The position numbers and the translations under genes are program-made. Below, piece after piece: positions 17,487-38,494 of a stretch of DNA of 64,000 nt (its first letter is position 1; each line of letters opens with the position of its first letter). Below the pieces are notes generated by a model that was not told the origin of the DNA, searched no databases, and saw only the letters and a program-made list of their open reading frames with translations. Origin of the DNA: Buttiauxella selenatireducens (GTDB lineage Bacteria; Pseudomonadota; Gammaproteobacteria; Enterobacterales; Enterobacteriaceae). The stretch spans positions 5,084,001-5,148,000 of the forward strand of contig NZ_CP133838.1 of the NCBI RefSeq assembly GCF_031432975.1, in the 5' to 3' direction.

Positions 17487-18443
17487 TTGCTTCAAATCCG
17501 TCGTGTGTTTTTCTCTCTCGTCAGCACACTGGTGCTGACAACCCCCGTTTACGCCGGAAAACTGGCAATTGTGATAGATGATTTCGGTTATCGTCCCGCA
17601 CAAGAAAATCAAGTTATCGCACTGCCTTCTAACATTTCTGTTGCCGTTCTGCCCAATGCTCCTCACGCCCGCGAAATGGCCACCAAGGCGCATAATGCCG
17701 GGCACGAAGTGCTGATTCACTTGCCAATGGCCCCTCTTAGCAAACAGCCTTTGGAAAAAGACACCCTGCGCCCGGATATGAGCAGCGGTGAGATCGAAAG
17801 AATCATCCGTGACGCGGTCAATAAAGTGCCCTTCGCTGTGGGTTTAAACAACCACATGGGTAGCGCCATGACCTCCAGCCTGTTCGGTATGCAGAAAGTG
17901 ATGCAGTCACTTGGGCAATACAATCTTTATTTTCTCGACAGTATGACGATAGGAAATAGCCAGTCGATGCGGGCTGCTGCAGGTACTAACGTCAAAGTTA
18001 TCAAGCGTAAAGTCTTCCTGGACGATACACAAAACGAAGCCGATATTCGCTTCCAGTTTAATCGGGCAGTAGAGTTAGCTCGCCGAAATGGTTCCGCGAT
18101 TGCCATAGGCCATCCGCATCCGTCGACCGTACGCGTGCTGCAACAAATGGTCTACAACCTGCCTTCGGATATTACGTTGGTGCGCCCAAGCAGCTTGCTC
18201 AACGAACCTCAGATTGATACTTCCAGGCCAAATAATACGCGCCCTGTACAGCCTGTTAAACCGACTGAACAACCCAGAAATCCTTTCAGTGGCGTGAAGC
18301 TTTGCAAGCCTAAGAAACCGCTGGAACCCGTGTATGTCACCACATACTTTACTGTTTTGAGCGACAGTATCAGTCAAAGCACGCTGGTGAAATATATGCA
18401 GTATCAATGGCAGGGATGGGACACAAGCAAACCTCAGTCCTGA
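17487..18443 (+). CDS. yibQ: Divergent polysaccharide deacetylase family protein YibQ
   Basis: Exported protein of the divergent polysaccharide deacetylase 2 family (DUF610). Substrate unknown, presumably an envelope glycan. 318 residues from a TTG start 3 nt after the envC stop; the short spacing suggests coupling. Signal peptide of about 23 residues ending PVYA before GKLAIVIDDFG. The deacetylase-fold motifs IDDFGYRP, HLPMAP, NNHMGS and GHPHPST are present. The tail past 230 is proline-rich, then has VKLCKPKKP. Its 3' end overlaps the convergent glycosyltransferase gene by 10 nt. Confidence 0.93.
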   Translation: MLQIRRVFFSLVSTLVLTTPVYAGKLAIVIDDFGYRPAQENQVIALPSNISVAVLPNAPHAREMATKAHNAGHEVLIHLPMAPLSKQPLEKDTLRPDMSSGEIERIIRDAVNKVPFAVGLNNHMGSAMTSSLFGMQKVMQSLGQYNLYFLDSMTIGNSQSMRAAAGTNVKVIKRKVFLDDTQNEADIRFQFNRAVELARRNGSAIAIGHPHPSTVRVLQQMVYNLPSDITLVRPSSLLNEPQIDTSRPNNTRPVQPVKPTEQPRNPFSGVKLCKPKKPLEPVYVTTYFTVLSDSISQSTLVKYMQYQWQGWDTSKPQS

Positions 18444-19252
18444 CGCGATACACGCGCAGAGGAAGTCGTGGCTGAACTTTCTTTGCGCGCGTTCTTGTGT
18501 TCCTGCCCTTTTTTATACCAGGCTTTAAAATATTTCAGGAAACTATAGAGAGTGGCATAAATACCCGTAACGACTCCTACTCGTCCGGTTCGCCATGCGC
18601 CGCTAAATAAATACCATTTAAAAAAAGCCCCTATAGCGCTAAATATCCCTCTGGTAAGTGAAGGAGTGATATCTTTGTTGACAACAAGTCTTGTGGTGTA
18701 ACTATTTAATTTATTAAAAACTTCATGAAGATTATAAAAAGTATCATGACGAACAAAACCAGGTATTACTGATGAGTGAGAATACCCGGTAACCTGATCG
18801 TCCACAGGGCGATCGTTAAATTTTGCTTGCTGGCGATTAAACAGTCGGACGGGAAAATCAGGTGAGGAAACAGGATAAATTGTTCTGACTTGTTCACCCA
18901 ACACGAACCAGTAGCGCGAAATTCGCCATGACTGCCCTGCCTCTGGGCTTTCACCGGATTTCAATGCCAACAGATAACTCACCGTCCTATCATCAAGTAT
19001 CTCATCGCTATCCATACAGAATACCCAATCGTGGCTGGCAAGAGTGATGGCATAATTCATTTGCTGACCATGTGTCTGGAATTTATTGTAGACAGGTTCA
19101 ATACCAAACCGACGAGATATATTAATCGTTTCATCAGTACTTCCGGAGTCTGCAATAATAACTTCATCGGCAACTTTCATTAATGGCGTCAATACATCAC
19201 TCAGCAAACGAGATGAATTAAAGGTCAGGAGACAAACAGTTAATTTAAACAT
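18434..19252 (-). CDS. WaaE/LgtF-like family 2 glycosyltransferase
   Basis: Inverting GT2 sugar transferase, probably acting on LPS core at the inner membrane. Start chosen at 19252 (MFKLTVC), where homology to the family begins; a frame extension of 16 codons upstream is hydrophobic but unlike the family. 272 residues. Nucleotide-binding VIIADSGSTDET at about 31-42 and metal-binding DSDE at 81-84 align with DSGSTD and DTDE of WaaE at 37227, so the two are distant paralogues. The C-terminal third is amphipathic (FFKWYLFSG, YSFLKYFKAWYKK), likely membrane-bound. AT-rich compared with yibQ. Donor and acceptor cannot be told from sequence. Confidence 0.8.
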   Translation of the reverse strand: MFKLTVCLLTFNSSRLLSDVLTPLMKVADEVIIADSGSTDETINISRRFGIEPVYNKFQTHGQQMNYAITLASHDWVFCMDSDEILDDRTVSYLLALKSGESPEAGQSWRISRYWFVLGEQVRTIYPVSSPDFPVRLFNRQQAKFNDRPVDDQVTGYSHSSVIPGFVRHDTFYNLHEVFNKLNSYTTRLVVNKDITPSLTRGIFSAIGAFFKWYLFSGAWRTGRVGVVTGIYATLYSFLKYFKAWYKKGQEHKNARKESSATTSSARVSRQD

Positions 19253-19445
19253 AGCCACACATCGAAAAAAGGAAAAACTATATAATGAAAAAACCACCAA
19301 CTTTAAAATAAATGATGTCCGGTTTCATATTATATATAATCATAAAACTGGAAGCAGCGCCGCATGAACAGCTAAAAGCATTAGTTATCACACTTATCAG
19401 CCTTTATAATGCGGGCTGATTATTGCTACAAAGGCCTGGGCTTCA

Positions 19446-20678
19446 ATGACGCAACAACGGCGTAAAATTCTCCTGCTGGATAACGGTAAAGAGTGGGGTG
19501 GCGGTACCAACAGCATGTTGGAACTGCTCAAACGTATTGACCGTCAGCGGTTTGATATCACGTGCTGCTTTTACTACAACTACGCACGCGGAGAAGGTGA
19601 AACCATTGAGAAGGTGCTAAATAGCATTGATATCCCTGTTATTTTCATCCCGCAGCGCAAACAGCCGGGTTGGGCAAAAGTCAGCAAAGAAGTGGCACGC
19701 GCATTTTTGTTTTTCAGCAAGGCTGGGCGCAAAAAAGTGACCGCGTATATTGATGCTCAATGGCGAATCCAACCGAACGCAAAACGTATTCGCGAGATAA
19801 TCCAGCGCGATAATTACGAAATTCTGTACATGAATAACCAACCAGGATCCAATTTGGAAGGTTATCTGGCGGCAGAGCCACTTGATGTTGCTGTCGTTCA
19901 ACACTGCCGTATTGAGCCAGTGATGAGTCAGTCGATTTCCAGAATAGTGAACCGTGTCGGCGATGCCGTTATTGCCGTCTCCCATGGTGTAGAGCGGGTA
20001 TTGCTCAATCATGGAGTGAAGAAATCACTCTGTGTTACGGTTCCTAACGCCATTGACATACACCAACCTCTGCCCTCCGGTATGGCGATACGCCGGTCGT
20101 TAGGCATTGAAGACGGCACATTTCTGTTTGGCAGTATTGGGTCATTGATCCCGCGAAAATCCTGCCACCACACGCTCGAAGCTTTGCATCGTTTTCAACT
20201 GCAGCACCCCGAAGCAAAATGGAAGTTTGTCCTGGTGGGAGAAGGCGCAGATCGCGAAAAGTTAAAGCGCCAGGCAGCTGATTACGGATTCGCCGATCGC
20301 GTGATTTTTACTGGCTTCCGTAATAACCCACTGGATTATTTGGCCGCGTTTGATGCCTTCATACTTGCTTCTAAAAGTGAGGGATTGCCGCGAGTTGTCC
20401 TCGAATCCATGTTGCTCAAAACTGTAGTTATCGGTTCAAATGTGACAGGTACTGCTGAGTTAATCGACTCAGGTCGCACCGGTCTGCTCTACCCATATGG
20501 TGATACCGTTAAACTCGCTTCGCAACTTCAGCAAGTGTGGCAAGATAGCGAATTACGTGATGCTTTAATTGAGCAAGCTTACGTGCGTGTGATTGATAAT
20601 TATGCGATCGAGCACTATGTTGCCGGTGTCGAAGCCGTTCTTGGCGCAGCAAAACCAACCCGGAATGAAAATGTTTAA
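19446..20678 (+). CDS. Family 4 glycosyltransferase (unassigned)
   Basis: Retaining GT-B glycosyltransferase of family GT4, most likely a cytosolic LPS-core or surface-glycan enzyme. 410 residues. N-terminal acceptor domain starts LLLDNGKEWGGGTN, a glycine-rich loop typical of GT4. The C-terminal donor domain has FGSIGSLIPRKSCHH near 225, VGEGADREKLK near 260 and the E-x7-E type motif SEGLPRVVLES near 310. Divergent from the GT2 at 18434 across a 193-bp AT-rich gap, and overlaps the next gene, so it forms a two-gene operon. No counterpart at this position in E. coli K-12, where waaH (yibD) sits here. Confidence 0.82.
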   Translation: MTQQRRKILLLDNGKEWGGGTNSMLELLKRIDRQRFDITCCFYYNYARGEGETIEKVLNSIDIPVIFIPQRKQPGWAKVSKEVARAFLFFSKAGRKKVTAYIDAQWRIQPNAKRIREIIQRDNYEILYMNNQPGSNLEGYLAAEPLDVAVVQHCRIEPVMSQSISRIVNRVGDAVIAVSHGVERVLLNHGVKKSLCVTVPNAIDIHQPLPSGMAIRRSLGIEDGTFLFGSIGSLIPRKSCHHTLEALHRFQLQHPEAKWKFVLVGEGADREKLKRQAADYGFADRVIFTGFRNNPLDYLAAFDAFILASKSEGLPRVVLESMLLKTVVIGSNVTGTAELIDSGRTGLLYPYGDTVKLASQLQQVWQDSELRDALIEQAYVRVIDNYAIEHYVAGVEAVLGAAKPTRNENV

Positions 20679-21591
20679 ATTTCTGAATGCAAAATATCGC
20701 CATATTACGGCGCGACATAACATCCCTTATCAGGAGCCAGCAGTTGGAAGTGCTGCTGTGCCGGTAACGTCAATTGTTATTCCTTGCGCTGGCGCGGATT
20801 ACATCGAAGAAGGTTTGCTTTCAGCAACGTTCGCGGCACGTTTCGCTCCTGATGTTGAGGAGATCGTAATTGTTTCCGATCGCCCTGCTATAGAGTTTGG
20901 CGAACTGCCACCTAAAACCCGAGTCGCAACGCTTGAGCTCACACAGCGTGAAGAAGGCTATCGTTACAAGCAAATTTACCTAAGTCGCTTAATCAAGCTG
21001 AATGCGCCTTTGCAAGCTCGTACCGACGGTATTTTGATGATCGACTCCGATCTCAACTTGCTGCAAATGCCACGTTTTAAAATCGAAGAACATCATATTT
21101 ATTCCAGTTTCCGTCAGGGGAAAATGATCGCCAAACTGGATAAAGCACCGGCCGAAAAAGTGCCTGCGTATTACAAAGATACCGTTCGTCCATACATTGT
21201 CGATCACGTTAACGGGGCTTTCCTGGCCGCATCACGAAAAACCTGGCGTCGAATCTGCCCGTTATGGCTCACGTTATTCAAGGACACATGGGAGCTGATG
21301 GACGATAGCCAACCGCCAACAGACCAGCTACCTTTGGCTGCATTACTGGATATGCTCGATATCAAAACAGTGAATTTGGGTGACTGGATGAACTGGCCGG
21401 TATCCAAGAAAATTGGGGGCGTAGCCTCAGTTATCCCAAAACCGGTTGTTGGTGCACATGGCGGCTTCCCACTTTCAGAATGGCAAAAATATCTTGTCTC
21501 GCCGGAGAGCGAATTGCTGTTTAAAGGACAAGATTACACCCGTAAAGTGCGTTACCTGACGGATGCTGAAAAGCTTACTGCAAGCGAATAA
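20671..21591 (+). CDS. Putative DxD glycosyltransferase (unassigned)
   Basis: Probable GT-A-fold nucleotide-sugar transferase. Opening VTSIVIPCAGADYIEEGLL and the metal site MIDSDLNLLQ (DSD near residue 127) fit a GT2-like catalytic core, but the sequence is not one I recognise. The middle region (YIVDHVNGAFLAASRK) could be the acceptor side. Starts at ATG 20671 (MFKFLNAKYR), 6 nt after GGA; ATG 20665 is two codons earlier. 306 residues, overlapping the GT4 stop by 8 nt, so coupled to it. A terminator follows, ending the operon before convergent tdh. Confidence 0.7.
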   Translation: MFKFLNAKYRHITARHNIPYQEPAVGSAAVPVTSIVIPCAGADYIEEGLLSATFAARFAPDVEEIVIVSDRPAIEFGELPPKTRVATLELTQREEGYRYKQIYLSRLIKLNAPLQARTDGILMIDSDLNLLQMPRFKIEEHHIYSSFRQGKMIAKLDKAPAEKVPAYYKDTVRPYIVDHVNGAFLAASRKTWRRICPLWLTLFKDTWELMDDSQPPTDQLPLAALLDMLDIKTVNLGDWMNWPVSKKIGGVASVIPKPVVGAHGGFPLSEWQKYLVSPESELLFKGQDYTRKVRYLTDAEKLTASE

Positions 21592-21641: not shown

Positions 21642-22667
21642 TTAATCCCAGCTAAGAATCACTTTGCCTGACTGCCCGGAACGCATTGCATCAAACCCTT
21701 TCTGGAAATCATCGATACCAAAACGGTGAGTGATAATTGGTGATAGATCCAGACCAGACTGAATCAATGCCGCCATTTTGTACCAGGTTTCGAACATCTC
21801 ACGTCCGTAAATCCCTTTGATGAACAGGCCCTTGAAGATAACTTTCGTCCAATCGATAGACATATCTGATGGCGGGATCCCCAGCATCGCAATACGGCCA
21901 CCGTGGTTCATAGTATCGAGCATGGTACGGAATGCTGGTGGTGCACCTGACATTTCCAGGCCCACATCAAAGCCTTCAGTCATACCCAACTCTTTCATCA
22001 CATCTGTCAGGTTTTCTTTGCTGACGTTTACCGCACGGGTGATACCCATTTCACGCGCCAGTTCAAGACGATACTCGTTCACATCAGTGATGACGACGTT
22101 ACGTGCGCCGACGTGCTTAGCTACGGCCGCAGCCATAATACCAATCGGGCCTGCACCAGATACCAGTACATCTTCGCCGACCAAATCGAATGACAGCGCG
22201 GTGTGAACAGCGTTGCCAAACGGGTCAAAGATAGAAGCTAAATCGTCGGAGATGTTGTCAGGGATTTTGAAAGCATTAAAAGCAGGCAGGACCAAATATT
22301 CTGCAAAACAGCCAGGACGGTTCACACCGACGCCTGTCGTATTACGACACAGGTGAGTACGGCCCGCACGGCAGTTACGGCAGTGACCACAGGTAATATG
22401 GCCTTCGCCGGAAACACGATCGCCGATTTTAAATCCTTTCACTTCCTGGCCGATTCCGACCACTTCACCTACATACTCGTGGCCTACAACCATCGGAACC
22501 GGAATGGTCTTCTGGGACCATTCATCCCAGTTATAGATATGCACATCGGTGCCGCAAATCGCGGTTTTACGGATTTTGATCAGCAGATCGTTATGACCCA
22601 TTTCTGGCTTGGGCGCATCCGTCATCCAGATGCCTTCTTCTGCTTTCAGTTTCGCTAATGCTTTCAT
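21642..22667 (-). CDS. tdh: L-threonine 3-dehydrogenase
   Basis: Zinc enzyme that oxidises threonine to 2-amino-3-ketobutyrate, the first step of threonine breakdown to glycine and acetyl-CoA. The start is the ATG at 22667 ([12 protein letters not shown]), giving 341 residues as in E. coli; the open frame extends upstream into kbl but is not homologous. Catalytic zinc ligands are C38 in TAICGTD and the H of VVGHEYVG; four cysteines of CGHCRNC...HLC form the structural site. NAD-binding GAGPIG lies near 176. 10 bp after kbl. Confidence 0.98.
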
Positions 22668-27074: not shown

Positions 27075-28166
27075 ATGAGCTATCTATTCCTCTTTGTCAT
27101 CTTTCTCCCGTTCAAGTTAGTCGGAAAACTGTTTTATAAAAAAACAGGCCGAAACTTGATGATTCAAACGGCAAAAATAGGTGATTTCGTCAATGTCACG
27201 CCTTTGCTCAGCCATCTGAAGAACAGTGATGTGTTAATCAGCAAAACAGTTCTTCCGTTGGCTAAATATGATGAAACCATCGACACTATTTTTCTTATCG
27301 AAGAACATAAAAAGAGCCTGTGGCGTAAGTTCCGTCTGGCATTCACTCTGTTGAATCGCTACGAAAACGTCTATTTGTTACAACCTAACAGCACTAATCT
27401 GTTCTTTGCTGCGGTTTGCAATGCAGCAAACAAGCAATTCCTCTCGACTTACACTCGCCGTTGGTATCACACTTTTTTTTACCTGACAGCGAACGGCATT
27501 GTTGAACATCGCAAAGAACAGCTAACTGTAGACGATTACCTTAAGCTTGCAGATCGCAGCCTAACCTGGCGTGATGTTCCTAAGCATGCCACCCTCCCGT
27601 TAAGAAAACCTACGACCTATCCACTATCACTGGATAAACAAAACGTAACCAAAATAGGTCTGAGTATTTCTGCAGGAAACAAATCAAAAACCATTCCTTC
27701 AGCAATCTGGAAGAAAATTTTTAATGCGTTAGAGGGATTAAATTGTACTTATTTTGTTTTTGGCCCTAAAAGTGAACAAGTATGGTTAGATGATCTACAC
27801 CGCGAAGTCGGAATGCGGGAAGATATTGTGAGTCTGGTTGGTGAACTTCCTTTAGAAGATGTGCCTTTTGCCATCAGCAAAATGGATTTCTATATTGCAT
27901 CAGACTCTGGAAATGTCTACATAGCTGATGCAGTAGGCGTCCCAATTGTTCTCATTTACGGTCCATGCTGCATTGCAGAACAAAGGCCTTTGGGGAATGT
28001 GTTGCTGATTGGAAGCAAAGAATATGAAAAATCATATATCTTTGAAGCACCTTATTATTTTGACCGAACAAGAGAAGAGATGTTTGCATTGAGTGATAAC
28101 GATCTTAATGCTATCCGTGATTTCATCCACCAAAATCTACAACACAATGACATCATCAAAAATTAA
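27075..28166 (+). CDS. Additional GT9 heptosyltransferase-like protein
   Basis: Fourth GT9 enzyme of the locus, candidate outer-core heptosyltransferase (the role of WabM or WabJ type genes in Klebsiella, or WaaU in E. coli). 363 residues. It has an extra hydrophobic N-terminus (LFLFVIFLPFKLVGKLF, residues 4-20) before the family opening MIQTAKIGDFVNVTPLL, and a late SDSGNVYIADAVGVPIVLIYG that matches the donor loop. AT-rich, unlike waaF and waaC just upstream. A run of eight T at 27473-27480 lies in codons for HTFFYL. Its exact acceptor is not determinable here. Confidence 0.8.
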   Translation: MSYLFLFVIFLPFKLVGKLFYKKTGRNLMIQTAKIGDFVNVTPLLSHLKNSDVLISKTVLPLAKYDETIDTIFLIEEHKKSLWRKFRLAFTLLNRYENVYLLQPNSTNLFFAAVCNAANKQFLSTYTRRWYHTFFYLTANGIVEHRKEQLTVDDYLKLADRSLTWRDVPKHATLPLRKPTTYPLSLDKQNVTKIGLSISAGNKSKTIPSAIWKKIFNALEGLNCTYFVFGPKSEQVWLDDLHREVGMREDIVSLVGELPLEDVPFAISKMDFYIASDSGNVYIADAVGVPIVLIYGPCCIAEQRPLGNVLLIGSKEYEKSYIFEAPYYFDRTREEMFALSDNDLNAIRDFIHQNLQHNDIIKN

Positions 28167-30328: not shown

Positions 30329-30355
30329 AAAGCCGGGCTCTTACCCGGCTTTTTT
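30329..30355. terminator. Bidirectional terminator, waaL / wabN
   Basis: Stem AAAGCCGGG/CCCGGCTTT (30329-30337 with 30344-30352), 6-nt loop, T-run after it. The wabN stop codon is in the loop and the right arm is the last codons of wabN, so coding sequence and terminator share bases. Confidence 0.85.
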
Positions 30356-31300
30356 ATAATCATAATACTCCGCCAGCGTCATTCCTCTGGTTCGCTCTGC
30401 GAGCCAGGAGAATAATGTCTCAAGGTCCTGATAAAGCCTCTCAATATCCGCTTCATCTTTGAACGTAGGACTACCACCCGGCATAAACTCTGATGAATGA
30501 AGCATAAACTCAACGTAATCATTACCTTGAGATAATGTTTTTTCGGCTACCGCTATCATTTGCGCAGCATTACCGCCTGACGGACGCAACCAATTAACCG
30601 AAGGGCTACGATATTTACCTCTCAGCCGATCATAACTTTGTTTAAAGCTATTCATCAAAGCACTGTGCTTATACTGAATACTCATCGGAACCTCGAGAAA
30701 TGCTGAATTTCCTGTCTGATGAATATTCTCCAGATCCATAAAATAAGCCTGACCTGGAAAATGTTGATAATCCGTTCCGCCAGAGCCTGAAGGGGATCCT
30801 TTCGCATTTCGCCAGTTAACCCTCGGCGTCACAGAGCAATCGACTTTATAACCCAACTCCACCAGTAACCTGGCGTAGCGGCTATCAAATGCCCAACGTC
30901 CTGCACGGTGGCTGATCATTTTTGTGCAGAATGTTTCTTCCAGCAATGTGGTCATATAAACCACTTTCTCTCGCATGATCTCATCACTGTACTCAATGAG
31001 ATAGGGCTGCCAACGCCAGTCATCGCCGGTTAAATCGTGTTCTGGTGGGCTATTCCAGGCGTGCAAGTGCATGCCTACTTCACCCTGGCCACGCGCAATC
31101 ACATCTTTTGCAAACTCGATAAAAACCGGATCTACAGCCATCTCATAATTCGTTAGCCAAACCGGTTTGAACCCGTACTTTTCACATAAAGACTGGAAAC
31201 GAGGTAAAAAACGCGCATTTTCAGTTTTGATTTGTCGGTGGTTTTGCCAGAGATTATCGCCTTCGGTATCAATGGTGATGATAAATGCAGGTTTGGTCAT
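30341..31300 (-). CDS. wabN: LPS core hexosamine deacetylase WabN
   Basis: Polysaccharide-deacetylase-fold enzyme. In Klebsiella, WabN deacetylates the core GlcNAc added by WabH to GlcN, a step needed before the outer core is completed. 319 residues from the ATG at 31300 (MTKPAFIIT); nine more codons upstream lack homology. The ITIDTEGD near 8-15 gives the metal-binding aspartates, GMHLHAWNSP near 86 and SHRAGRW near 133 the histidine and arginine motifs. No signal peptide, consistent with a cytosolic action. Convergent with waaL, sharing a terminator; divergent from waaQ. Confidence 0.85.
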   Translation of the reverse strand: MTKPAFIITIDTEGDNLWQNHRQIKTENARFLPRFQSLCEKYGFKPVWLTNYEMAVDPVFIEFAKDVIARGQGEVGMHLHAWNSPPEHDLTGDDWRWQPYLIEYSDEIMREKVVYMTTLLEETFCTKMISHRAGRWAFDSRYARLLVELGYKVDCSVTPRVNWRNAKGSPSGSGGTDYQHFPGQAYFMDLENIHQTGNSAFLEVPMSIQYKHSALMNSFKQSYDRLRGKYRSPSVNWLRPSGGNAAQMIAVAEKTLSQGNDYVEFMLHSSEFMPGGSPTFKDEADIERLYQDLETLFSWLAERTRGMTLAEYYDYKKAG

Positions 31301-31457
31301 TTCCGTCTCTGAGATAAAGATGTTCACATCATGTTACGCAGCCTGCCAGATAAGGGCAAACCGCATACGTTCAAATTTCTAACTCCTGAGCACAAATGTA
31401 GCAACCACACTCAAGGTCTATTAGAATCACTCTTTGGTTAATCACCTAAAGATGATA

Positions 31458-34782: not shown

Positions 34783-35784
34783 ATGCAACAGAACCTACGT
34801 CCACTCCTCAGCGTTGTCGTTGCTGTTTATAACGGCGAGTCTTTTTTGGCTAAATTCTTTGCCTGTCTAGACGCTCAGAATATCGACGGCATGGAAGTCA
34901 TTATGGTGAACGATGGTTCAACCGATGGCTCCATGGCGATTATTGAAGCCTGGAGTAGCAAGTTCCCTGGCATGAAAATCATTGAGCAGGAAAATCAGGG
35001 CGTTTCGATTGCGCGTAATACTGGGCTCGCTGTAGCCACAGGCCAGTACCTTTCCTTCCCGGATATCGATGATGACTTCAAACCCGGCATGTACCGTCAT
35101 TTGCTGGATCTGGCATTAAAAAATGACCTGGATGTCGTGACGTGTAATGGAAATTACGTTTACGAAAACAACAAGAAGCCTTCACGACCGATCTTTCCGC
35201 GAGACAAACTTCAGTCGACCGACGTACTGAGTGGCCCCCAGTGGCTTAAACGTGCGCTGGATTCGCGCAAGTTTCTGCACGTAACCTGGCTGAACCTTTA
35301 TCGACATGATTTCATTCGCGAACATGGTTTTACTTTTGAACCCGGTTTACGCCATCAGGACATTCCGTGGACAACAGAGGTGTTACTTGCTGCGGAGCGC
35401 GTCCAATATACTGACGAGCAATACTACGATTACTACATCCATTCAGCCTCGGTTTCCCATAAACCAGATACTGATGACACCCTTATCCGCTCAGCTCGCC
35501 ATTATATGAAAATACTGGAAATGTTGGATGCTATTAACCAGCGTTATCCGGAAGCGGTAAAGAATATCCCTGCCTGTAACTGGCAAATCGCTAAAGAGGG
35601 TCTTGGGATATTACACACTTTCAATAATATGAAAGATCCGCACAAGAAGAAGATGATCGTTCAGGAGTTTTTTGATCGCGGTATCTGGCGTCTGATTTGG
35701 AAAAATGCTCGCGGATTCCGACTACGCTGGCGCCTGGGTCGTCGCTACCTAAAACTGAAGAAAGCGACCCGCGTACCGGGTTGA
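34783..35784 (+). CDS. WaaH/YibD-like family 2 glycosyltransferase
   Basis: GT2 enzyme resembling E. coli WaaH (YibD), the PhoB-induced transferase that adds glucuronic acid to Hep III. 333 residues. Shared features as I recall them: VMVNDGSTDGSM near 39-50, the metal region PDIDDDF, LQSTDVLSGPQWLKRAL, and GLRHQDIPWTTEVLLAAERVQYT followed by YYDYYIHSASVSH. In E. coli waaH lies by yibQ; here it is the last gene of the waaQ-wabG-wabH operon, 20 bp after wabH. A role as a Hep III uronosyltransferase (the activity of Klebsiella WabO) is my inference. Confidence 0.78.
   Translation: MQQNLRPLLSVVVAVYNGESFLAKFFACLDAQNIDGMEVIMVNDGSTDGSMAIIEAWSSKFPGMKIIEQENQGVSIARNTGLAVATGQYLSFPDIDDDFKPGMYRHLLDLALKNDLDVVTCNGNYVYENNKKPSRPIFPRDKLQSTDVLSGPQWLKRALDSRKFLHVTWLNLYRHDFIREHGFTFEPGLRHQDIPWTTEVLLAAERVQYTDEQYYDYYIHSASVSHKPDTDDTLIRSARHYMKILEMLDAINQRYPEAVKNIPACNWQIAKEGLGILHTFNNMKDPHKKKMIVQEFFDRGIWRLIWKNARGFRLRWRLGRRYLKLKKATRVPG

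Positions 35785-37226: not shown

Positions 37227-37227
<1 letters not shown>
35932..37227 (+). CDS. waaA: Kdo transferase
   Basis: Bifunctional inner-membrane GT30 enzyme that adds two Kdo residues to lipid IVA. About 431 residues from the ATG at 35932. E. coli WaaA (425) would begin at what is here CGC, so the start is unclear: ATG 35932 has no good ribosome site, while TTG 35953 lies about 9 nt after ACGGA. N-terminal membrane anchor [20 protein letters not shown], then [22 protein letters not shown] with the key glutamate, and [13 protein letters not shown] near the C-terminus. TAATG joins it to waaE. Confidence 0.95.

Positions 37228-38494
<1,267 letters not shown>

What the first reader, a model, noticed from the sequence alone, without database searches (positions are those of the whole stretch)
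18434..21591. Three unassigned glycosyltransferases between yibQ and tdh
A WaaE-like GT2 (leftward), a GT4 and a DxD-type transferase (rightward, overlapping) occupy the spot where E. coli has waaH. The set could make a second core modification or an extra surface glycan. The DxD protein at 20671 does not resemble a family I recognise. The divergent pair shares a 193-bp AT-rich gap, which suggests joint control.
Basis: partly seen in the sequence, partly recalled or inferred. Interest (0 to 1): 0.6.

Follow-up and report, generated by a model that had tools for sequence, protein, structure and literature searches.

The report
A split sugar-transferase module for LPS
Two of the three genes are a tightly linked pair of sugar-adding enzymes, one from an undescribed family, that come and go together with a third gene in the nearby endotoxin-core cluster, so they probably build a side branch on the bacterial surface lipopolysaccharide; the remaining gene is an exchangeable neighbour.

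Summary
The three genes are real and correctly placed, but they are not one set. P2 (GT4, 19446-20678) and P3 (DxD protein, 20671-21591) are a pair: each is found in 31 of 295 family genomes, 30 of them shared. All 31 P2 genomes also carry a GT9 gene that lies in this window's waa cluster (27075-28166). In 70 of 78 named loci P2 and P3 are adjacent, usually between yibQ and tdh or hldD (Buttiauxella, Enterobacter, Pantoea, Erwinia, Rahnella and others). P3 matches no Pfam or NCBIfam family. Its model (pLDDT 91.7) is a GT-A fold nearest to GT6/GT8 retaining transferases, with an invariant DxD and C-terminal His. P1 (GT2, WaaE-like) is largely independent: 42 of 295 genomes, 8 with P2. The yibQ-tdh gap is a variable slot that holds waaH, P1, another GT9, P2-P3 or nothing. 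A waaH-family gene exists elsewhere in the window (34783-35784). Best explanation: the GT9 starts a core side branch that P2 and then P3 extend; sugars, order and acceptor are inferred. P3 relatives also ride on phage-plasmids. Joint control of P1 and P2 is not supported.

The parts
19446..20678 (+). P2: GT4-type glycosyltransferase, 410 aa, GT-B fold
   Evidence: Pfam Glycos_transf_1 114.6 bits; AF2 model pLDDT 91.1, HepE Z 38.7, BshA Z 36.7-37.7; E312 and E320 invariant in 33 sequences
20671..21591 (+). P3: DxD glycosyltransferase of an undescribed family (alternative start 20665)
   Evidence: no family hit; AF2 pLDDT 91.7; GT6 Z 15.4, LgtC (GT8) Z 14.4; D127, D129, N183, D220, Q221, H265 identical in 47 of 47 rows
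27075..28166 (+). GT9 (heptosyltransferase-like) gene of the waa cluster, third member of the module by co-occurrence
   Evidence: Glyco_transf_9 54.5 bits; in 31 of 31 P2 genomes and 4 of the other 264
18434..19252 (-). P1: WaaE-like GT2 glycosyltransferase, largely independent occupant of the same slot
   Evidence: 29% over 252 aa to the window's WaaE-like protein; 42 of 295 genomes, 8 with P2
19404..19412 (+). TTATAATGC, candidate -10 element of the P2-P3 pair
   Evidence: identical in 12 of 12 aligned loci, once on the plus strand of the window, 33 bp before the P2 ATG; not listed by the consensus scan, which also wants a -35
34783..35784 (+). waaH-family GT2 located in the waa cluster instead of the yibQ-tdh slot
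   Evidence: NF007482 520.9 bits, cut-off 423; 37% over 306 aa to E. coli WaaH
17487..18443 (+). yibQ, left border of the variable slot
21642..22667 (-). tdh, right border of the slot (absent in some relatives, where hldD follows)

Best explanation
P2 and P3 are two overlapping genes for glycosyltransferases that act one after the other to extend a side branch of the LPS core. SHOWN: they are co-inherited with each other and with the GT9 gene at 27075-28166; P2 has a GT-B (GT4) fold and P3 a GT-A fold of the GT6/GT8 kind (predicted models); the slot that holds them is a place where LPS glycosyltransferase genes are exchanged. INFERRED: the GT9 protein adds a sugar, probably heptose, to the core; P2 adds an alpha-linked sugar to it; P3 adds a further alpha-linked sugar in a metal-dependent reaction (D127, D129, H265). 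A different GT9 gene in the same slot is the alternative decoration in some strains. P1 acts separately, as a one-sugar WaaE-like transferase. Phage-plasmids carry P3 relatives, perhaps to alter the host surface.
For: P2/P3: 31 and 31 of 295 genomes, 30 shared. GT9: 35 of 295, including all 31 P2 genomes. Nine genera mixed for P2: 13 P2+GT9+, 0 P2+GT9-, 3 P2-GT9+, 9 P2-GT9-. Ten genomes of the window's genus: 6 with P2, P3 and GT9; 3 with none; 1 (G005) with GT9, P2 remnants and a different GT9 gene in the slot. That slot GT9 was found in 2 of 207 genomes, both GT9+/P2-; G005 was found separately (56% identity). In two genomes of genus g97 (G106, G297) P2 is in the slot and followed by tdh while P3 lies elsewhere, yet both genes are kept. 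P2-P3 adjacent in 70 of 78 loci, followed by tdh (56) or hldD (12). The solo P3 of Trabulsiella L100 lies about 0.5 kb from a lipid A acyltransferase gene. Fold and motifs. That LgtC binds its metal with a C-terminal His is from PMC7185993 (passages).
Against: No chemistry: sugar, linkage and acceptor are untested. Co-occurrence counts are inflated by shared ancestry; the Fisher values ignore it. GT9 occurs without P2 in 4 of 35 genomes (G023, G097, G100, G169). G120 has P2 and GT9 but no P3. In G076 P2, P3 and GT9 are broken, but so are yibQ and hldD, so this is general decay and weak evidence. P3 shows no sequence-level homology to GT8 (hhalign 4.8%, small profiles), and Foldseek TM-scores to its best PDB matches are only 0.42-0.51, so catalysis rests on fold and motifs. 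Solo P3 copies on phage-plasmids and in L099 and L102 have no P2 or GT9 beside them, so P3 may use another acceptor there.
Confidence: 0.6

Rival explanations
1. P2 and P3 make or finish a glycan other than LPS (an exopolysaccharide, ECA variant or protein glycan) and sit beside the waa genes by history only.
For: Distant relatives in Verrucomicrobia lie among mixed glycan genes; a second P3 copy in Enterobacter quasihormaechei lies in an unrelated chromosomal place (L102).
Against: Co-occurrence with a GT9 of the waa cluster; the pair stays beside hldD where tdh-kbl is missing (12 loci); other slot occupants include waaH.
Confidence: 0.15
2. The pair decorates the LPS core at a site independent of the GT9 product, and the co-occurrence only marks one inherited core type.
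For: All genes belong to one core gene pool; four GT9 genomes lack P2.
Against: Joint presence and absence inside genera; another GT9 gene in the slot in three GT9+ genomes without intact P2.
Confidence: 0.2
3. P1, P2 and P3 form one pathway, under joint control from the 193-bp gap.
For: P1 and P2 are divergent and 183-203 bp apart in the six P1-bearing loci aligned. The two share 8 genomes where chance would give about 4.4 (Fisher p 0.06).
Against: 34 of 42 P1 genomes lack P2 and 23 of 31 P2 genomes lack P1; in L051 P1 lies between P3 and tdh; the P2 -10-like element is unchanged where P1 is missing.
Confidence: 0.05

Closest known systems
GT8 retaining transferases: LgtC and the E. coli core GT8-type proteins (waaO and neighbours)
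   Same: GT-A fold (LgtC Z 14.4, rmsd 3.8, 217 aligned); DxD, N, DQ and His at nearly the same positions as in three E. coli proteins; LPS-core context
   Different: No sequence homology detected (hhalign 4.8%; no Glyco_transf_8 hit among 47 members); TDQ and HGGFP in place of DQD and HYxGxTKPW
GT6: blood-group A/B and alpha-1,3-galactosyltransferases
   Same: Top fold match: Z 15.4, rmsd 4.1, 229 aligned, 10% identity, practically tied with LgtC
   Different: GT6 lacks the C-terminal His (PMC7185993, passages); P3 has it in 47 of 47; no sequence match
E. coli WaaH (YibD)
   Same: Same genomic slot; P1 has the same orientation
   Different: P1 is not WaaH (22% over 90 aa); P2 and P3 are other families; a waaH-family gene is elsewhere in the window
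WaaE (GT2; glucose on HepI, function recalled)
   Same: P1 is 29% identical over 252 aa to the window's WaaE-like protein
   Different: That WaaE-like gene is separate, beside coaD; P1 is a second gene
HepE and BshA (GT4)
   Same: P2 fold, Z 38.7 and 36.7-37.7
   Different: 17-24% identity; different substrates; no close named relative found

Membership tests
GT8 (P3) | GT-A fold of the LgtC kind | tested here: met
   predicted model, Z 14.4, rmsd 3.8, 217 aligned
GT8 (P3) | DxD and C-terminal metal-binding His | tested here: met
   D127, D129, H265 in 47 of 47 rows; geometry in the model not measured
GT8 (P3) | Sequence-profile similarity to GT8 | tested here: not met
   hhalign 4.8% against three E. 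coli GT8-type proteins, aligned part without the motifs; small profiles, low power; no Pfam GT8 hit among 47 members
GT6 (P3) | Fold of GTA/GTB and alpha3GT | tested here: met
   predicted model, Z 15.4, 229 aligned
GT6 (P3) | Sequence similarity to GT6 | tested here: not met
   profile search of PDB sequences at E<=10 listed 4 others (GalNAc-transferase 1 and RBBP6, E 1.2-1.7) and no GT6
GT6/GT8 (P3) | Retaining transfer from a UDP-sugar | not testable with these tools
   needs an enzyme assay
GT4 (P2) | Glycos_transf_1 domain and GT-B fold | tested here: met
   114.6 bits, cut-off 26.4; HepE Z 38.7
GT4 (P2) | E-x7-E motif (name recalled) | tested here: met
   E312 and E320 invariant in 33 sequences
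WaaE (P1) | GT2 domain and WaaE similarity | tested here: met
   47.8 bits, cut-off 23.3; 29% over 252 aa
WaaE (P1) | waaE locus beside waaA and coaD | tested here: not met
   that place holds 37227-38003
WaaH (P1) | NF007482 above cut-off | tested here: not met
   13.9 bits, cut-off 423
WaaH (window 34783-35784) | NF007482 above cut-off | tested here: met
   520.9 bits, cut-off 423

The most novel reading that the evidence does not exclude
P3 founds a new family of retaining, metal-dependent GT-A glycosyltransferases near GT6 and GT8. It is the last enzyme of a split three-gene LPS-core module (GT9, GT4, P3) that is exchanged as a functional unit although its genes lie 5.5 kb apart. Phage-plasmids have captured P3 to remodel the host core, for example to exclude rival phages.
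Probability: 0.4. Interest if true: 0.65.

Novelty: new variant of a known kind. Interest (0 to 1): 0.5.

Why it matters
P3 is named 'hypothetical protein' in the Enterobacter hormaechei record and on pEuc3, so surface-glycan predictions for such bacteria miss an enzyme. If the module acts as proposed, it defines a core type that can be read from sequence, gives a substrate path for a new glycosyltransferase family, and points to a surface change carried by phage-plasmids. It also shows that the yibQ-tdh gap is a place where core-modifying genes are swapped.

Tried and rejected
Family look-ups of P3 gave nothing firm. Pfam and NCBIfam: 0 at E<=1. PHROGs: one match at E 0.25. PADLOC: 0 at E<=0.01. 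PDB sequences: 0 at E<=10 for P3 alone; with the 47-row profile 4, GalNAc-transferase 1 twice and RBBP6 twice, E 1.2-1.7. Pfam on each of 47 members: 9 families, best SAC9_GBDL_2nd (8 members, E 0.033); glycosyltransferase-type models only in single members (Mannosyl_trans3 0.061, Glyco_tranf_2_3 0.077, Glycos_transf_2 0.17; DUF6492 0.14); all taken as chance or as very distant. Profile comparison with GT8 gave no homology over the motifs. Viral structure library: glycosyltransferases, GT8-labelled among them, E from 4.9e-10; no further use.

E. coli genomes: no similar DNA to the three-gene stretch (blastn only, which misses distant relatives). Phage records: no match to P3. Plasmids: 3 records: two Pantoea records of 94-95 kb, of which only pEuc3 was read, and an Enterobacter hormaechei record that holds this chromosomal locus. 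The wider order: 5 of 247 genomes, all in the window's own family. Promoter and terminator scan: no more sites than shuffles.

Papers. Searches. No listed paper was recognised as describing the pair; the terms yibQ and glycosyltransferase together gave 0 papers. Subscription journals are mostly not held, so this is no proof of absence from print. PMC5372575 (E. amylovora core) was read in parts 1 and 2 of 4; whether E. amylovora carries the module was not established. PMC13101476 was read in passages: its gene Eamy_RS26425 is discussed there as a possible UDP-glucuronate 4-epimerase, not one of ours. PMC7185993: passages. All others: search listing only.

Considered and rejected: the three genes as one set; loss of the waaH family; the viral contigs as proof of virulent phages.

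Changed on re-check: joint decay in G076 is now called weak, because yibQ and hldD are broken there too; the confidence went from 0.62 to 0.6.
Full report
OBSERVATION. P1 runs leftward from ATG 19252 to 18434. P2 runs rightward from 19446 to 20678. P3 starts at 20671 (or 20665) and ends at 21591, overlapping the end of P2. The gap between P1 and P2 is 193 bp at 35.8% GC. Neighbours are yibQ on the left and tdh-kbl-hldD-waaF-waaC and the rest of a waa cluster on the right (names from similarity to E. coli, or recalled). That its genus is Buttiauxella is inferred: the contig of G009, a genome of the same genus, has the same length as that of B. agrestis ATCC 33320.

WHAT EACH PROTEIN IS. P1 is a GT2 protein, 29% identical over 252 aa to the WaaE-like protein at 37227-38003, and not WaaH (22% over 90 aa). 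P2 is a GT4 protein. Its AlphaFold2 model (33 sequences, pLDDT 91.1) is a GT-B fold closest to HepE (Z 38.7, rmsd 2.9, 348 aligned), a Rickettsia glycosyltransferase (Z 38.4) and BshA (Z 36.7-37.7). P3 matches nothing firm by sequence: 0 Pfam and NCBIfam families at E<=1, 0 PDB sequences at E<=10; with a 47-row profile, 4 PDB sequences at E 1.2-1.7, two of them GalNAc-transferase 1; among 47 members only weak, scattered Pfam hits. Its model (47 sequences, pLDDT 91.7) is a GT-A fold closest to GT6 (Z 15.4, rmsd 4.1, 229 aligned) and GT8 LgtC (Z 14.4, rmsd 3.8, 217 aligned), practically a tie. Foldseek ranks the same GT6 structures first, with TM-scores of 0.42-0.51 by query length. D127, D129, N183, D220, Q221 and H265 are identical in 47 of 47 rows, Verrucomicrobia and phage-plasmid-clade copies included. 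Three E. coli GT8-type core proteins have DAD, FNxG, DQD and LIHYxG at nearly the same positions. A profile comparison with those three shows no homology over the motifs (4.8%; both profiles are small, so the test is weak). P3 is therefore not filed as GT8. That LgtC uses a C-terminal His for its metal, and that GT6 lacks it, is from PMC7185993 (passages).

THE PAIR. A scan of one genome per species gave 78 loci with P3 relatives (the scan needs one of two short peptide patterns, so it misses some). In 70 of 78 P2 lies directly before P3 (L104, a Sodalis, counted although its frames are broken); in 68 of these 70 yibQ lies before P2, and in the other two (L095, L111) P2 is at a contig end. The next gene is tdh in 56, hldD in 12, P1 in 1 and none in 1. 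The eight exceptions are five solo P3 copies (L099-L102, L106), one decayed locus (L107) and two Verrucomicrobia loci (L108, L109). Where tdh-kbl is missing, for example in several Erwinia, the pair sits directly before hldD-waaF-waaC.

CO-OCCURRENCE. In the same 295 genomes of the family, P3 is in 31, P2 in 31 at E<=1e-70, and the GT9 gene of 27075-28166 in 35 at E<=1e-60. Some hits are fragments or contain stops (for example G051, G076, G079, G129 and G132 for P3; G079, G129, G132, G166 and G263 for P2). P2 and P3 share 30 genomes; G120 (1.2 Mb) has P2 only and G076 a broken P3 only. All 31 P2 genomes have the GT9; the other four GT9 genomes are G023 (1.1 Mb), G097, G100 and G169. The Fisher values ignore ancestry, so within-genus changes are the better test: in nine genera with mixed P2 status I counted 13 P2+GT9+, 0 P2+GT9-, 3 P2-GT9+ and 9 P2-GT9- (genomes taken by hand from the rows listed, so unlisted ones are missed). 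Among ten genomes of the window's genus, its own not counted, six have P2, P3 and GT9, three have none, and G005 has GT9 but only P2 remnants. P1 is in 42 of 295 at E<=1e-40; 8 of these have P2, against about 4.4 by chance (p 0.06), so P1 is not tied to the pair, though a weak trend cannot be excluded.

REPLACEMENT AND DECAY. In G005 the slot reads yibQ, P1, P2 remnants, a different GT9 gene, tdh. Relatives of that slot GT9 sit in the slots of G169 (the protein searched with; 56% identical to the G005 copy) and G100 (56%, opposite orientation); a search of 207 genomes found it only in those two, and both carry the waa GT9 and lack P2. In G097 about 7 kb of other DNA lies between yibQ and tdh. 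In G076, a 2.2-Mb genome, P2, P3 and the GT9 are broken, but yibQ and hldD are too, so this says little. In genus g97 (G106, G223, G297) P3 and P2 lie apart; in G106 and G297, the two whose slot was read, P2 is followed directly by tdh. The named Trabulsiella loci L100, L101 and L106 also show a solo P3 of about 61% identity, so g97 is probably Trabulsiella. The association thus does not depend on adjacency alone.

THE SLOT. In 60 genomes, one per genus, chosen by hand from those with listed yibQ coordinates and, G106 aside, without P2, the gap after yibQ has no recognised gene in 27 (23 before tdh, 4 before hldD), holds waaH at 60% identity or more in 15, P1 alone in 7, a weaker waaH-like GT2 in 2, such a GT2 plus a waaL-like gene in 3, P1 with P2 in 1, slot GT9 in 1, P1 with slot GT9 in 1, and something else in 3 (regions). 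The E. coli record looked at has waaH there. This window's waaH-family gene is at 34783-35784.

CONTROL. In 12 loci aligned upstream of P2 (6 with P1, 6 without; the window and its near-identical L035 both counted) the longest invariant stretch is TTATAATGC; in the window it lies 33 bp before the P2 start. It looks like a -10 element; the consensus scan, which also wants a -35, did not list it. Since it is the same without P1, joint control is not supported; it is not excluded either.

MOBILE COPIES. Solo P3 copies from Trabulsiella, Enterobacter quasihormaechei, Pantoea, a plasmid and viral contigs form one clade (10 rows, 100/100). E. quasihormaechei also has the pair in its slot (L041 and L102). 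Pantoea plasmid pEuc3 is annotated with capsid, portal, terminase, tail and baseplate genes and a plasmid replication gene, so it is a phage-plasmid; 'P1-like' rests on recalled gene names. Beside its P3 are a gene annotated as serine acetyltransferase and a bacteriocin gene; the counterpart of the former in L113 has a hexapeptide repeat match just under the cut-off. In Trabulsiella L100 the solo P3 lies about 0.5 kb from a lipid A acyltransferase gene.

DISTANT COPIES. Two Verrucomicrobia loci (44-45% identity) also have GT9 and GT4 genes near P3. In L109 a GT4 lies directly before P3 and a GT9 34% identical to the window's GT9 lies 2.7 kb away; in L108 a GT9 gene is the direct neighbour. The tree branches to these two are very long, so their place is unsure.

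READING. The GT9 gene and the P2-P3 pair behave as one functional unit split over about 5.5 kb, and the unit belongs to the LPS core by position and by the kind of genes it is exchanged with. The likely order is GT9, P2, P3, because among the 295 genomes GT9 occurs without the pair but P2 was not found without GT9. Donors, linkages and acceptors are inferred from fold only. The E. amylovora core (PMC5372575, parts 1-2) shows that outer-core heptoses on GalA exist in a related genus, which fits a GT9-started branch but does not test it.

Noticed in passing
34783-35784: A waaH-family GT2 (NF007482 above cut-off) lies inside the waa cluster, not in the yibQ-tdh slot.
   Followed up: yes
30341-31327: A protein whose syntenic counterpart in Enterobacter hormaechei is annotated as polysaccharide deacetylase family protein (L125) has no Pfam or NCBIfam match at E<=1.
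   Followed up: no
L124:2999-5541: Phage-plasmid pEuc3 has P3, an acetyltransferase-like gene and a lipid II-degrading bacteriocin gene side by side.
   Followed up: partly
L102:3996-4910: Enterobacter quasihormaechei has a second P3 copy of the phage-plasmid clade, outside the yibQ-tdh slot (neighbour looks like lysC, recalled).
   Followed up: partly
L037, the 482 bp between yibQ and P2: This gap of Buttiauxella sp. B2 aligns with the 5' end of P1 in other loci, so P1 may have been lost there.
   Followed up: partly
L146, L165, L175: In three genera the yibQ-tdh slot holds a set with a waaL-like gene and a GT2.
   Followed up: no
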